The notes beneath the pieces were generated by a model. The model saw nothing but the letters and a program-made list of their open reading frames with translations. It was not told the origin of the DNA and did no database searches. Both the position numbers and the translations under genes were made by a program. From Aureispira anguillae (lineage in GTDB: Bacteria > Bacteroidota > Bacteroidia > Chitinophagales > Saprospiraceae): DNA of 64,000 nt. Positions 3,286 to 6,741 of the stretch are shown here, piece after piece. Position 1 is the first letter of the stretch, and every line of letters starts with the position of its first letter. The stretch covers positions 4,948,001-5,012,000 of the forward strand of contig NZ_AP026867.1 of NCBI RefSeq assembly GCF_026000115.1. Reading direction: 5' to 3'.

Positions 3286-3696
3286 CTAGTCTTGCTTAAT
3301 ATTTTCAGGACGATTAAGTACGGTCTTATAGCTACCAACCGATAATAGCACCAAGGTGCAAGCTATTTCTATAATGGTTTCGGGCAGTTCTTTTTTTAAA
3401 AGCCCATAAAGTTCGGGATTTTCTGTTCCTGGATTAAAAATCACCCGTTTAGGTTTTAGGCTAAGAATATAATCATAGTATTCTTGCTGAACTTGGGCGT
3501 TTAGGTATAAAGTAATGGTATGTACAGCAGCGATTGTAGGGCGGTCGTTCCGAATGGGAATTCCCGCAGTACTCCCCTTTCTGATGCCAACAGGAATTGT
3601 TTCAATTCCATGTTCTTGTAATTGTTCTACTGCTCGATACGCATAACGCTGAGGATTCGTAGTTGCCCCTAAGACAACAGTTTTATAGTCATTCAT
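3286..3696 (-). CDS. CoA-binding domain protein (YccU-like)
   Basis: 136 residues matching the small single-domain CoA_binding_2 family: an N-terminal Rossmann beta-strand with VLGATTNPQRYAYRAV (phosphate-binding turn), the G(I/V)xxIPV strand, and a conserved VIFNPGTENPEL segment near residues 86-97. Family members bind coenzyme A or similar nucleotides; the biological role is not settled. The gene starts 53 bases downstream of the choline transporter gene on the same strand, so it may be co-transcribed with it, although no functional link is evident. Full length for the family, with no unusual residues. Confidence 0.85.
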   Translation of the reverse strand: MNDYKTVVLGATTNPQRYAYRAVEQLQEHGIETIPVGIRKGSTAGIPIRNDRPTIAAVHTITLYLNAQVQQEYYDYILSLKPKRVIFNPGTENPELYGLLKKELPETIIEIACTLVLLSVGSYKTVLNRPENIKQD

Positions 3697-3749: not shown

Positions 3750-5387
3750 TTATCCATTTTCGCCTTTCAAACCAACCTCTACCAACTGTAATTCTTGGGG
3801 AGGAGCTTGTTTTTGAGTCATTCTAGAAACAATAATAATACTTATTAAACCAGAAATCATCGCTAAAGTTCGAAAAGGAAATAAAACAGCGACTCGAACA
3901 CCATCAAGCATTTCTGCACCTGCATCAATAATTGGATAATTAATAAAAGTAGGAATTCCCAAAGTAGCATCTCCTCCTCCAAAACGCAATACAGCAGCAA
4001 TAAGCAGTCCTGCTATTGCACCATATTTATTAGCTTTGGGATCAAATAAAGCACAAACCAAGGCAGGAAACAACAAACAATAGACAAAATCACTGCACAA
4101 AAACCACAAGGCATAAATACTTTTAACTTGTAATGCAATCAATGTTGCTGCAATTCCTACAATCCAAATACAAGATTTAATTACTTTTGCCAGCTTTTCA
4201 GAACTCACCTGAGGATCTAGAATAGGTCGATAGACATTCCAACTTGCCATTGAAGAAGAAGACAAAATGGAAGAATCTGCCGAAGACATCACCGCTGCTG
4301 CCACAGCCCCCAAACCTATTGTTGCCACAATAGAAGGGGTCATAGATTTCATCACCATTGGCAAAATCTCAAGACTATTTGCAGGCGTTCCGCCCAAGGT
4401 GCTCCAATCTGCTACATTTCCAACTACTCCAATCATAATGGGCGGAATGGCTGCGATCAAACAAACAACACCCGCCAAAATGGATAAATTACGGGCTGTT
4501 TTTTCATCTTTGGCAGATAATACCCTTTGAAAATAAACCTGCCACGGTATTCCACCAAAAATCAATAATAAAGCATAATCCCACCAGTTCCAATAATAAC
4601 TGCCTAAAGCCTCTGTAGAGGGTAGTAAAGATGCTGCTGCTCCAAATTTAACTTGGTAGGCAGCCCATGCGGTATCCCACCCCCCTACAAAATCAAGCGC
4701 ATAAGGAATGGTTATAAATAATCCCAATAACAATAAAACCATCTGGATTACATCGGTTAAGGCGACCGCCCAAAGCCCTCCCAATGCGGTATACGCAATC
4801 GCTATCAATGCAGATAACACAATAGAACTCTGAAAATCAAGTCCCAGCACAACCCCAAAAGTAGATCCCAATGCCGATAAAATTGCTGCCGTCCAAAAAA
4901 TTTCCCCTGTCAAAGCAGGCAAAAAGAAAAAAGCTGCTACCTTTTCTCCAAATCGTTGTGCCAAAGGGTCTAACATGGTTTTAAATTGGTAACGACGCAT
5001 TTTTTGGGCAAAGAACAGACCACCAACAATTAAACTCAACGCATAGCCCCAAGGAGCCTGTACCCAAACTAAACCAGAGCTATAAGTTGCTTCTGCTGCT
5101 CCATTGATATAGCCCCCTCCTACCCAAGTAGCACTCATGGTAAAAATGGCAATCCACAACGGAATAGAACGTCCTGCCAACATCACTTCTTCTTCACTGC
5201 TGTTATCTCCCTTCTGAGCAGCAATGTAACTCCCCATAAAAAAGACCACCCCATAAAAAAAGAGCATGGAGATAAAACCTCCCCAAAAAACCTCATTATT
5301 CGTAAAAAAATATAGATACCCCCCCACAGCAGCTAAAAAGCTCATCATAATTGCTGTTGGAACAAATGCTTTAATTGGAATTTTCAT
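3750..5387 (-). CDS. Na+-dependent choline symporter, CHT1 (SLC5A7)-like, SSS family
   Basis: 545 residues with about 13 hydrophobic membrane segments. It is a sodium:solute symporter that resembles animal high-affinity choline transporters much more than typical bacterial proline or glucose symporters. Shared segments include TMSATWVGGGYINGAAEA, GGLFFAQKMR, TMLDP, GEIFWTAAILSALG, GGIPWQVYFQRVLS and GAVAAAVMSSADSSILS. Expected role: Na+-driven uptake of choline across the inner membrane. It is divergent from the phosphatidylcholine synthase gene at 5529, with 141 bases between the start codons, which independently supports choline as substrate. The C-terminal cytosolic tail of the animal proteins is absent. 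Betaine or another quaternary amine cannot be ruled out from sequence alone. Confidence 0.85.
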   Translation of the reverse strand: MKIPIKAFVPTAIMMSFLAAVGGYLYFFTNNEVFWGGFISMLFFYGVVFFMGSYIAAQKGDNSSEEEVMLAGRSIPLWIAIFTMSATWVGGGYINGAAEATYSSGLVWVQAPWGYALSLIVGGLFFAQKMRRYQFKTMLDPLAQRFGEKVAAFFFLPALTGEIFWTAAILSALGSTFGVVLGLDFQSSIVLSALIAIAYTALGGLWAVALTDVIQMVLLLLGLFITIPYALDFVGGWDTAWAAYQVKFGAAASLLPSTEALGSYYWNWWDYALLLIFGGIPWQVYFQRVLSAKDEKTARNLSILAGVVCLIAAIPPIMIGVVGNVADWSTLGGTPANSLEILPMVMKSMTPSIVATIGLGAVAAAVMSSADSSILSSSSMASWNVYRPILDPQVSSEKLAKVIKSCIWIVGIAATLIALQVKSIYALWFLCSDFVYCLLFPALVCALFDPKANKYGAIAGLLIAAVLRFGGGDATLGIPTFINYPIIDAGAEMLDGVRVAVLFPFRTLAMISGLISIIIVSRMTQKQAPPQELQLVEVGLKGENG

Positions 5388-5480
5388 TGCGTTAGTAATT
5401 AGGCAAATAGATTGGATTAGATTCTAGGCTTATTTAACATTTTATAAAAGTAATAAAAAAATGTAATTCTACTTTTCTAA

Positions 5481-5510
5481 TTTGCAATTACCCAAATATT
5501 TGTATTTTGC
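5481..5510 (+). promoter_or_regulatory. Possible promoter of the phosphatidylcholine synthase gene
   Basis: A TTTG (5481-5484) is followed after 18 bases by TATTTTG (5503-5509), close to the Bacteroidota primary-sigma pattern TTTG-N19-TAnnTTTG but one base short in the -7 box. It lies about 20 bases upstream of the start codon, within the 141-base divergent spacer. Confidence 0.3.
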
Positions 5511-5528
5511 TTTTTTAAATAAAGAAAG

Positions 5529-6275
5529 ATGGAAAAACAAACAGAATATACCTTTGGGCAAAAAGCAGCAGCTTGGGGCGTTCATGCTTTTACTGCATCG
5601 GGAATTGTTGCAGGTTTTTGGGGCATTGTATCGGTTGCTAATGGCGATTTTTTTATGGCTTTTGCCATGCTGTTTTTAACGGTAATTATTGATGGTGTAG
5701 ATGGGACGTTTGCACGAATTTTTAAGGTGACAGAAGTCTTACCTAATGTATCAGGAAAAACCATGGACTATGTCATAGACTTTGCTACCTATGCCATTAT
5801 TCCTGCTTTTATCGTCTACGAGGCAGGCTTGATTCCAGAAGATTTGAGGATATGGGCGGCGGCTATTATTCTATTAGTGTCAACCTTATATTATGGCAAA
5901 GAAGGTATGGTATCCAGAGATTTATATTTTGTTGGTTTTCCTGTTATGTGGAACTTGGTCGCCTTCTATTTATATTATGTAACCGCTCTGCCTCCTATGG
6001 GAAATTTTATTTTGGTAATTGTCTTTGCCATCTTACATTTTGTTCCCATTAAGTACTTGTACCCTAGTCGTACCAAAAAATTTATGAAACTGAATATCTT
6101 GGCAACTATTTCGCTGATTGTTAGCAATTTTGTGCTCTTGGTTTTGGTGGAATGGAACTATCAACTGCCAACAGCAATAGGAATCACTAGGATTGTATCG
6201 GTTCTGTCTCTATTATATTTTGGGGCTTTGAGCGTTTATCATACTTGGTTTGATCCTGACACCAAGGATATATAA
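5529..6275 (+). CDS. pcs: Phosphatidylcholine synthase (CDP-diacylglycerol-choline O-phosphatidyltransferase)
   Basis: 248 residues, multi-pass membrane protein of the CDP-alcohol phosphatidyltransferase family. The catalytic motif reads D58-G-x2-A62-R63-x12-G76-x3-D80-x3-D84, within IIDGVDGTFARIF and VSGKTMDYVIDF. The 12-residue gap after AR, and the flanking VLPNVSG and ATYAIIPAF segments, are features of bacterial Pcs enzymes rather than of phosphatidylglycerol-phosphate or phosphatidylserine synthases. The reaction condenses choline directly with CDP-diacylglycerol to give phosphatidylcholine and CMP in the inner membrane. The divergent neighbour is a CHT1-like choline transporter, so substrate supply and use are encoded side by side. 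Length is typical for Pcs. The ATG at 5529 is the natural start, as no extended N-terminus is conserved upstream. Confidence 0.88.
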   Translation: MEKQTEYTFGQKAAAWGVHAFTASGIVAGFWGIVSVANGDFFMAFAMLFLTVIIDGVDGTFARIFKVTEVLPNVSGKTMDYVIDFATYAIIPAFIVYEAGLIPEDLRIWAAAIILLVSTLYYGKEGMVSRDLYFVGFPVMWNLVAFYLYYVTALPPMGNFILVIVFAILHFVPIKYLYPSRTKKFMKLNILATISLIVSNFVLLVLVEWNYQLPTAIGITRIVSVLSLLYFGALSVYHTWFDPDTKDI

Positions 6276-6278
6276 AAA

Positions 6279-6301
6279 GCTCTTGGCTGAATGCCAAGAG
6301 C
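6279..6301 (+). terminator. Hairpin just after the pcs stop codon
   Basis: A 9-bp perfect stem (6279-6287 with 6293-6301, 5-base loop) begins 3 bases after the stop. It has only a weak T-tract downstream, so termination efficiency is uncertain. Confidence 0.55.
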
Positions 6302-6741
6302 CGATCAATGTTTAATCAGGGTGGTTTATACCTTTGCCAAAGTTGTTAACACGAATATTCCACAGAGTAAGGCAACTTCAACATAAATTATAAAAACTAA
6401 AAGAAGAGTAAGATTTCTCCACTCTACTTTTAGTCCTAAAAACGCTAATTCTTATCAAGTCATATAACTAAAGTTTAACTCATAAACTCAAACGCATCAC
6501 TTGATCTAAAACCTGACTCTAAAATAAGGCACAAAATATATTTCTTCTTGTCTTTTTCTAGCCATTTCTACACATTCAAAGCTCCAACAAATTCATAAAA
6601 AGCTAATAATCAAGACAAACAAACAAAACAAGCTAATATTTCAAGCTTAAACAATTAACTTGGTTCTGCATTTTTAATTTGTATTCTGCTTGCTCACCAT
6701 TAAATTTTGTATCGAAACCACAGGCATTGATAGATATATCC
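6302..6741. other. AT-rich intergenic region
   Basis: About 440 bases with no credible coding frame on either strand, no repeats and no RNA-like structure that I can support. Confidence 0.4.

What the first reader, a model, noticed from the sequence alone, without database searches (positions are those of the whole stretch)
3750..6275. Divergent choline importer and phosphatidylcholine synthase: a two-gene 'choline to membrane lipid' module
A symporter whose conserved segments read like animal high-affinity choline transporter CHT1/SLC5A7 (for example ATWVGGGYINGAAEA and GGIPWQVYFQRVLS) sits head-to-head, 141 bases apart, with a gene carrying the phosphatidylcholine-synthase motif D-G-x2-A-R-x12-G-x3-D-x3-D. 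Pcs needs free choline, which most bacteria must import. Phosphatidylcholine synthesis is better known from proteobacteria, so a Bacteroidota module using a eukaryote-type choline transporter would be notable, with implications for host or algal choline use.
Basis: partly seen in the sequence, partly recalled or inferred. Interest (0 to 1): 0.72.

Follow-up and report, generated by a model that had tools for sequence, protein, structure and literature searches.

The report
Choline importer paired with lipid-making enzyme
A marine gliding bacterium carries, side by side, a sodium-driven choline importer related to the human nerve-cell one and an enzyme that probably turns choline into the membrane lipid phosphatidylcholine; the pair recurs in many relatives and may move between bacteria as a unit.

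Summary
Window 3750-5387 (-) encodes a 545-aa CHT/SLC5A7-type sodium:choline symporter and 5529-6275 (+) a 248-aa phosphatidylcholine synthase (Pcs), divergent, 141 bases apart, in an Aureispira-like genome (nearest named locus). The importer's best solved match is a proven bacterial choline transporter, sfCHT (654 bits; human CHT1 385; other symporters at most 74); the choline and Na+ site residues are kept. Pcs matches five PC-synthase models at 130-159 bits, PssA at 43; the genome has a separate PssA. Of 80 named CHT loci, 42 carry Pcs (41 divergent) and 13 others carry choline-oxidation genes BetA and/or BetB instead. A Bacillota CHT sits beside betB, GbsB and a choline regulator. So the importer keeps its company with choline enzymes while the enzyme changes. 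In two genomes of another family both genes group with Phaeodactylibacter, which suggests joint transfer. 'Eukaryote-type' is off: the closest kin are bacterial. PC is already reported in some Bacteroidota. No transport or lipid assay exists for this pair.

The parts
3750..5387 (-). CHT/SLC5A7-type sodium:choline symporter, 545 aa
   Evidence: ORF; Pfam SSF 138 bits; sfCHT 654 bits and human CHT1 385 bits; site residues R73, A86, T87, W88, Y115, W165, A209, Q215, W282, Q287, R288, W428 identical in 82 of 82 CHT rows
5529..6275 (+). phosphatidylcholine synthase (Pcs), CDP-alcohol phosphatidyltransferase family, 248 aa
   Evidence: ORF; five NCBIfam Pcs models 130-159 bits against PssA 43 bits; 42.6% identity over 71% of the query to an annotated Sinorhizobium meliloti pcs; Pcs tree
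5691..5780 (+). catalytic motif D-x2-D-G-x2-A-R-x12-G-x3-D-x3-D (residues 55-84)
   Evidence: D55, D58, G59, A62, R63, G76, D80, D84 invariant in 25 of 25 rows; x12 spacing
5388..5528 (.). divergent intergenic region, 141 bases; a block at about 5447-5511, on the Pcs side, is alike in two other Aureispira loci (L074, L076) and may hold the pcs promoter
   Evidence: sequence; alignment of 4 loci (the fourth, L081, does not share the block); no regulator site identified
6278..6302 (.). 10-pair stem-loop just after the Pcs stop codon, terminator-like (scored on the - strand)
   Evidence: 7 such sites found in the region scanned against a shuffled mean of 3.1, so a consensus match only
3286..3696 (-). 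CoA-binding protein gene 53 bases downstream of the importer; probably not part of the module
   Evidence: Pfam CoA_binding_2; a 128-aa ORF family recurs just downstream of CHT in only 5 of 80 named loci (cluster 11); its identity with this gene was not checked

Best explanation
The two genes form a choline-to-membrane-lipid module. The 3750-5387 protein, a CHT-type LeuT-fold symporter, uses the inward Na+ gradient to pull choline into the cell. The 5529-6275 protein, an integral-membrane CDP-alcohol phosphatidyltransferase, joins that choline to CDP-diacylglycerol and releases CMP, giving phosphatidylcholine in one step. Divergent placement would let both be switched from one intergenic region. 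CHT is best seen as a choline importer whose linked enzyme varies by lineage (Pcs in Saprospiraceae and kin, BetA/BetB in other Bacteroidota, GbsB plus betB in a Bacillota plasmid), and the cht-pcs pair can travel together. Shown: families, motifs, gene linkage, co-occurrence, change of partner, matching trees. Inferred: substrate, Na+ coupling, PC product and co-regulation in this organism.
For: Importer: sfCHT 654 bits, human CHT1 385, next symporter 74; of 14 sfCHT choline, Na+ and exit-site positions (PMC13220886, sections read) 12 are identical in 82 of 82 CHT rows. Enzyme: five Pcs models 130-159 bits, PssA 43; the genome's own PssA scores 99 as PssA and 20-23 as Pcs. Linkage: of 60 near genomes (own included) 20 have CHT and 19 of these have strong Pcs; 13 of the 19 have the two within 1.7 kb, all 13 divergent. 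Phylum sample of 395 (own included): CHT in 8, Pcs in 26, all 8 CHT genomes have Pcs (Fisher 1e-10, relatedness not corrected). Named loci: Pcs on 42 of 80, 41 divergent; ORF gap under 0.5 kb in 34 of 42, 1.0-3.4 kb in 8. Change of partner: 13 of 80 have BetA and/or BetB and no Pcs; BetB is over its model cut-off in 12 of 13, BetA over its cut-off in 8 of 13, and 12 of these 13 genomes have no Pcs match at E 1e-10. Priestia megaterium CHT (52.3%) lies beside betB, GbsB (730 bits, cut-off 550) and the choline regulator CudC (225, cut-off 218). Other uses of choline in the own genome: no BetA-family match at E 1e-20, no BetB over its cut-off (0 of 20 near CHT genomes for either), no BCCT importer, no choline kinase family match. 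Congruence: 46 linked pairs, Mantel r 0.66, 0 of 2000 permutations.
Against: No assay. The Pcs equivalog cut-offs (300-440 bits) are not reached, and the Pfam CDP-alcohol score is 20.7 against a cut-off of 22. Six of 19 near genomes with both genes do not have them linked (draft contigs in part). Four of 60 near genomes have strong Pcs without CHT, and 18 of 26 Pcs genomes in the phylum sample lack CHT, so CHT is not the only supply. Of 80 CHT loci, 25 show neither partner; of the 38 without Pcs, 10 have under 1.5 kb of upstream DNA. Partner choice is not exclusive: G228 has BetA (785 bits, over cut-off) next to CHT and a Pcs of the other type elsewhere, and L143 has Pcs, CHT and a BetA-like gene. 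The change of partner rests on only 2 independent contrasts on the tree. The 80 loci are those nearest the window's protein out of 279, so the proportions do not describe CHT at large. No shared regulator site was found. The own genome has three aldehyde-dehydrogenase matches to the BetB model below its cut-off, best 473 bits. Choline ABC importers, LicB and PmtA were not searched in the own genome.
Confidence: 0.87

Rival explanations
1. The importer carries choline mainly for another end (glycine betaine for salt tolerance, or carbon and nitrogen), and the neighbouring Pcs is a bystander.
For: Thirteen of 80 CHT loci are linked to BetA and/or BetB, G228 likewise, and the sfCHT paper favours osmoprotection or nutrition (PMC13220886, passages). 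Five of 20 near CHT genomes have a BetA-like oxidoreductase below the family cut-off.
Against: The own genome has no BetA-family match at E 1e-20 and no BetB over cut-off. Of the 13 Bet-linked genomes 12 have no Pcs match and 1 a weak one; of the 67 other rows (window included, L143 set aside) 62 have strong Pcs, 3 none, 2 weak. The Pcs link recurs across many genera, 41 of 42 in the divergent layout.
Confidence: 0.07
2. The symporter carries a choline-like solute (betaine, carnitine, another quaternary amine) rather than choline.
For: Close homologues in one superfamily can differ in substrate (general knowledge); no assay on this clade.
Against: The aromatic cage W88, Y115, W165, W282, W428 is kept in 82 of 82 rows, and the linked enzymes, from unrelated families, act on choline or its aldehyde.
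Confidence: 0.04
3. The CDP-alcohol enzyme is not Pcs but a PssA-like or archaetidylserine-synthase-like enzyme using serine or another alcohol.
For: Low Pfam score, equivalog cut-offs not reached, PssA match of 43 bits and archaetidylserine synthase 45 bits; the only solved relatives found by the profile are PssA at 27 bits.
Against: All five Pcs models score 130-159 bits, at least 84 more than either; own PssA present; x12 motif spacing as in S. meliloti Pcs, x8 in own PssA.
Confidence: 0.03

Closest known systems
sfCHT of Salimicrobium flavidum and human CHT1 (SLC5A7)
   Same: Sequence family, choline and Na+ site residues.
   Different: Here linked to a lipid-making enzyme; the paper says the roles of prokaryotic homologues remain unclear and suggests osmoadaptation or nutrition (PMC13220886, passages).
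Pcs of Sinorhizobium meliloti, with choline supplied by the ChoXWV ABC importer
   Same: One-step PC synthesis from imported choline (PMC3972451, passages); Pcs 42.6% identical over 71% of the query.
   Different: That importer is an ABC system. In the S. meliloti stretch shown (gene table incomplete) nothing is annotated as a choline importer, though an ABC ATP-binding protein of unstated substrate lies about 1.2 kb downstream. Here the importer is a one-protein symporter, gene-linked and divergent.
Choline-to-betaine loci (BetA/BetB, GbsB/betB) with a CHT importer
   Same: CHT gene next to choline-using enzymes, in Arenibacter, Cerina, Marinilabilia, Echinicola, Algoriphagus and others and Priestia.
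   Different: Expected product is glycine betaine, not a lipid.

Membership tests
CHT (SLC5A7-type) choline symporters | closest to CHT members among solved sodium symporters | tested here: met
   654 and 385 bits to sfCHT and human CHT1, at most 74 to others
CHT (SLC5A7-type) choline symporters | choline cage and Na+ residues | tested here: met
   W88, Y115, W165, W282, W428, A86, T87, Q215 match sfCHT and are identical in 82 of 82 rows; V89 is V in 68, I in 14
CHT (SLC5A7-type) choline symporters | Na+-dependent, hemicholinium-3-sensitive choline uptake | not testable with these tools
   needs a transport assay
Phosphatidylcholine synthase (Pcs) | higher score to Pcs models than to PssA, PgsA | tested here: met
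   130-159 bits against 43 for PssA; PgsA not listed at E 0.001
Phosphatidylcholine synthase (Pcs) | CDP-alcohol motif with x12 spacing and all catalytic residues | tested here: met
Phosphatidylcholine synthase (Pcs) | NCBIfam equivalog cut-off of a single Pcs model | tested here: not met
   best 158.9 bits against 300. By their names the five models look limited to lineages (my reading), so this bars filing under any one of those equivalogs, not under the wider Pcs family
Phosphatidylcholine synthase (Pcs) | makes PC from choline and CDP-diacylglycerol | not testable with these tools
   needs an enzyme assay
PssA (phosphatidylserine synthase) | PssA equivalog score and x8 motif | tested here: not met
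   43 bits against cut-off 107; x12 spacing

The most novel reading that the evidence does not exclude
CHT is a general bacterial choline-import module that has been wired at least three ways (to Pcs, to BetA/BetB, to GbsB/betB), and the cht-pcs pair is a transferable two-gene cassette that lets a recipient build phosphatidylcholine membranes from environmental choline; human neuronal CHT1 would belong to a family whose bacterial members often feed membrane-lipid synthesis.
Probability: 0.55. Interest if true: 0.68.

Novelty: new variant of a known kind. Interest (0 to 1): 0.58.

Why it matters
The 2026 sfCHT paper says the physiological roles of prokaryotic CHT homologues remain unclear (PMC13220886, passages). 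The gene neighbourhoods give a testable answer that differs by lineage: membrane PC in Saprospiraceae and kin, betaine elsewhere. A two-gene module is small enough to test in laboratory E. coli, which makes no PC (general knowledge), and could be a handy way to give a bacterium PC membranes. It also flags marine Saprospiraceae as likely users of free choline, a link to algae and decaying eukaryotic matter that remains inference.

Tried and rejected
Considered and rejected: PssA or PgsA identity; proline, pantothenate or sugar symporter identity; a CDP-choline route through choline kinase PF01633 (no match in the own genome); a choline-oxidation partner in the own genome (one search had used too strict a threshold, E 1e-100, and was repeated at 1e-20); a linked transporter beside the other Pcs type in group f43/g135: the neighbours scanned (both genes of L175, the longer one of L176) are BlaI/BlaR1-like regulators. 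Led nowhere: shared regulator site in the intergenic region; PDB relatives of Pcs other than PssA; polar-lipid reports for Aureispira (listings of up to 15 rows; none seen). Print: ten searches of an open-licence library, listings of 2 to 15 rows each; in these, and in passages or sections opened from eight papers, I saw no report of a CHT-Pcs gene pair; subscription journals are mostly not covered. Structure prediction was not run. PmtA, choline ABC importers and LicB were not searched in the own genome.

Rows dropped: the named scan kept the best 80 of 279 CHT relatives. In 60 near genomes one weak Pcs match (G044, 26 bits) was not counted as Pcs. In 'strong' means 80 bits or more (two of these, L079 and L120, are partial), weak matches of 46-52 bits were left out of the Fisher test, and L143 was set aside. 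The second CHT tree used 69 of 89 rows; 20 rows with no partner were left out. The Pcs tree used 20 of the 45 Pcs loci from the genome search plus 42 named loci, the window, two references (S. meliloti annotated pcs; a Halomonas stretch named by similarity only) and own PssA. Some genomes are in both collections (G008 contig 23 has the length of the L074 contig), so counts from the two must not be added.

Full report
What is there. One search gives a 545-aa ORF at 3750-5387 on - and a 248-aa ORF at 5529-6275 on +, head to head with 141 bases between. The window lies in a 7.79-Mb genome whose nearest named kin at this locus is Aureispira sp. CCB-QB1 (87% for the importer). Each gene has one match in the genome at the thresholds used (Pcs E 1e-5; importer E 1e-40).

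The importer. It is a sodium:solute symporter (Pfam SSF 138 bits). Against all solved structures the best match is 9rws/9rwt at 654 bits, then human CHT1 at 385; vSGLT and the rest are at 74 or less. 9rws/9rwt is sfCHT of Salimicrobium flavidum, shown to carry choline with Na+ and to be blocked by hemicholinium-3 (PMC13220886; abstract, passages and four sections read). Mapping its residues by hand through the alignment, the cage W99, Y126, W176, W298, W445 becomes W88, Y115, W165, W282, W428 here. One search finds 12 of 14 mapped positions identical in 82 of 82 rows (80 named loci, the window, Priestia); V89 varies V/I (68/14) and S291 S/A (56/26). So by sequence this is a CHT, and 'eukaryote-type' is the wrong frame: its closest kin are bacterial.

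The enzyme. Five NCBIfam Pcs models score 130-159 bits, PssA 43. The equivalog cut-offs of 300-440 are not reached, so I do not file it under any one of those models. The genome's own PssA (L002) scores 99 as PssA (cut-off 107) and 20-23 as Pcs. An annotated S. meliloti pcs is 42.6% identical over 71% of the query. The motif spacing is x12 in 65 of 65 Pcs rows and x8 in own PssA.

Is the pair real? In 60 near genomes (own included) CHT is in 20 and strong Pcs in 23; 19 have both, 1 CHT only (a 560-contig draft), 4 Pcs only. In 13 of the 19 the two lie within 1.7 kb, all divergent. In 395 genomes of the phylum (own included), CHT is in 8 and Pcs in 26, and all 8 CHT genomes have Pcs, 4 of 8 linked. 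In 80 named CHT loci, Pcs is on the locus in 42: 41 on the opposite strand upstream and one in line (L143); the ORF gap is under 0.5 kb in 34 and 1.0-3.4 kb in 8.

The natural control. Thirteen other loci (Arenibacter, Cerina, two Marinilabilia, two Echinicola, three Algoriphagus, Membranihabitans, a Prolixibacteraceae MAG, a Marinilabiliaceae strain and the MAG locus L126) have choline-oxidation genes beside CHT and no Pcs. Checked one by one, BetB is over its NCBIfam cut-off in 12 of 13 and BetA over its cut-off in 8 of 13; the thirteenth for BetB, L099, has a BetA fragment at a contig edge, and in L133, L137 and L147 the gene next to BetB is only BetA-like (310-352 bits). L143 holds Pcs, CHT and a BetA-like gene in a row. 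Of the 38 genomes without Pcs on the locus, 23 have a match elsewhere at E 1e-10; of the 13 Bet-linked ones 12 have none and one has only a 46-bit match. Among the 67 other rows, window included and L143 set aside, 62 have strong Pcs, 3 none, 2 weak. Conversely, of 20 near CHT genomes none has BetA or BetB over the cut-off. A Priestia megaterium plasmid has a 52%-identical CHT beside betB, a GbsB-type choline dehydrogenase (730 bits, cut-off 550) and the choline regulator CudC (225, cut-off 218). Enzymes from unrelated families that share choline or its aldehyde keep turning up beside this importer; that is the strongest indirect evidence for its substrate. The limits: the 80 loci are the nearest of 279; on the tree the change of partner rests on only 2 independent contrasts, so the Fisher values are not to be taken at face value; and it is not exclusive, since G228 has BetA beside CHT (785 bits) and a Pcs of the other type elsewhere.

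Cassette. In group f43/g143, G165 and G259 have the divergent pair, and both their CHT (96*) and their Pcs (99*) group with Phaeodactylibacter xiamenensis, while three congeners (G176, G228, G392) have another branch of CHT and another type of Pcs, on different contigs. This looks like joint transfer. Over 46 linked pairs CHT and Pcs distances correlate (r 0.66, 0 of 2000 permutations); shared ancestry explains part of that.

What else could use choline in this genome. No BetA-family match at E 1e-20, no BetB over its cut-off though three aldehyde dehydrogenases score up to 473 bits, no BCCT importer, no choline kinase. PmtA and choline ABC importers were not searched.

What is known. Pcs fed by an importer is known: ChoXWV in rhizobia, Agrobacterium and Brucella (PMC8371380, PMC3972451; passages). 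PC is reported in Rhodothermus and some Balneolaceae (PMC5167729, passages) and in Algoriphagus halophytocola (PMC11532033, passages). I saw no report of the CHT-Pcs pair in ten searches of an open-licence library (listed in Tried and rejected). So this is a new variant of a known kind: known chemistry, known families, a new wiring and a likely role for bacterial CHT.

Noticed in passing
L143 3-3913: A Chitinophagales contig has Pcs, CHT and a BetA-like gene in a row on one strand, combining both choline fates.
   Followed up: partly
L175 5210-8061, L176 3371-6221, L177 4491-7330, L178 5198-8151: A second Bacteroidota Pcs type (group f43/g135) lies next to a roughly 130-aa and a roughly 545-aa gene; those scanned (both of L175, the longer of L176) look like a BlaI/CopY-type repressor and a BlaR1-like sensor with a TonB C-terminal domain. 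Possible regulation of PC synthesis by membrane state.
   Followed up: partly
L130 6876-7760, L133 6874-7758, L137 6875-7789, L124 8323-9204: An MscS-type mechanosensitive channel gene (L137 scanned, one search set not included) lies beside Bet-linked CHT in three Algoriphagus loci, fitting an osmotic role there; L124 has a relative of it on a locus without Bet genes.
   Followed up: no
L079 156-1769: A contig filed as a Planctomycetota MAG carries an Aureispira-like CHT (83%); perhaps mis-binned.
   Followed up: no
L139, L144: Bdellovibrionota genomes carry CHT 65% identical to the window's, with no Pcs or Bet gene found on the locus and only weak Pcs-like matches (50-52 bits) elsewhere.
   Followed up: partly
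window 5447-5511: A non-coding block just upstream of pcs is alike in L074 and L076 but not in L081.
   Followed up: partly
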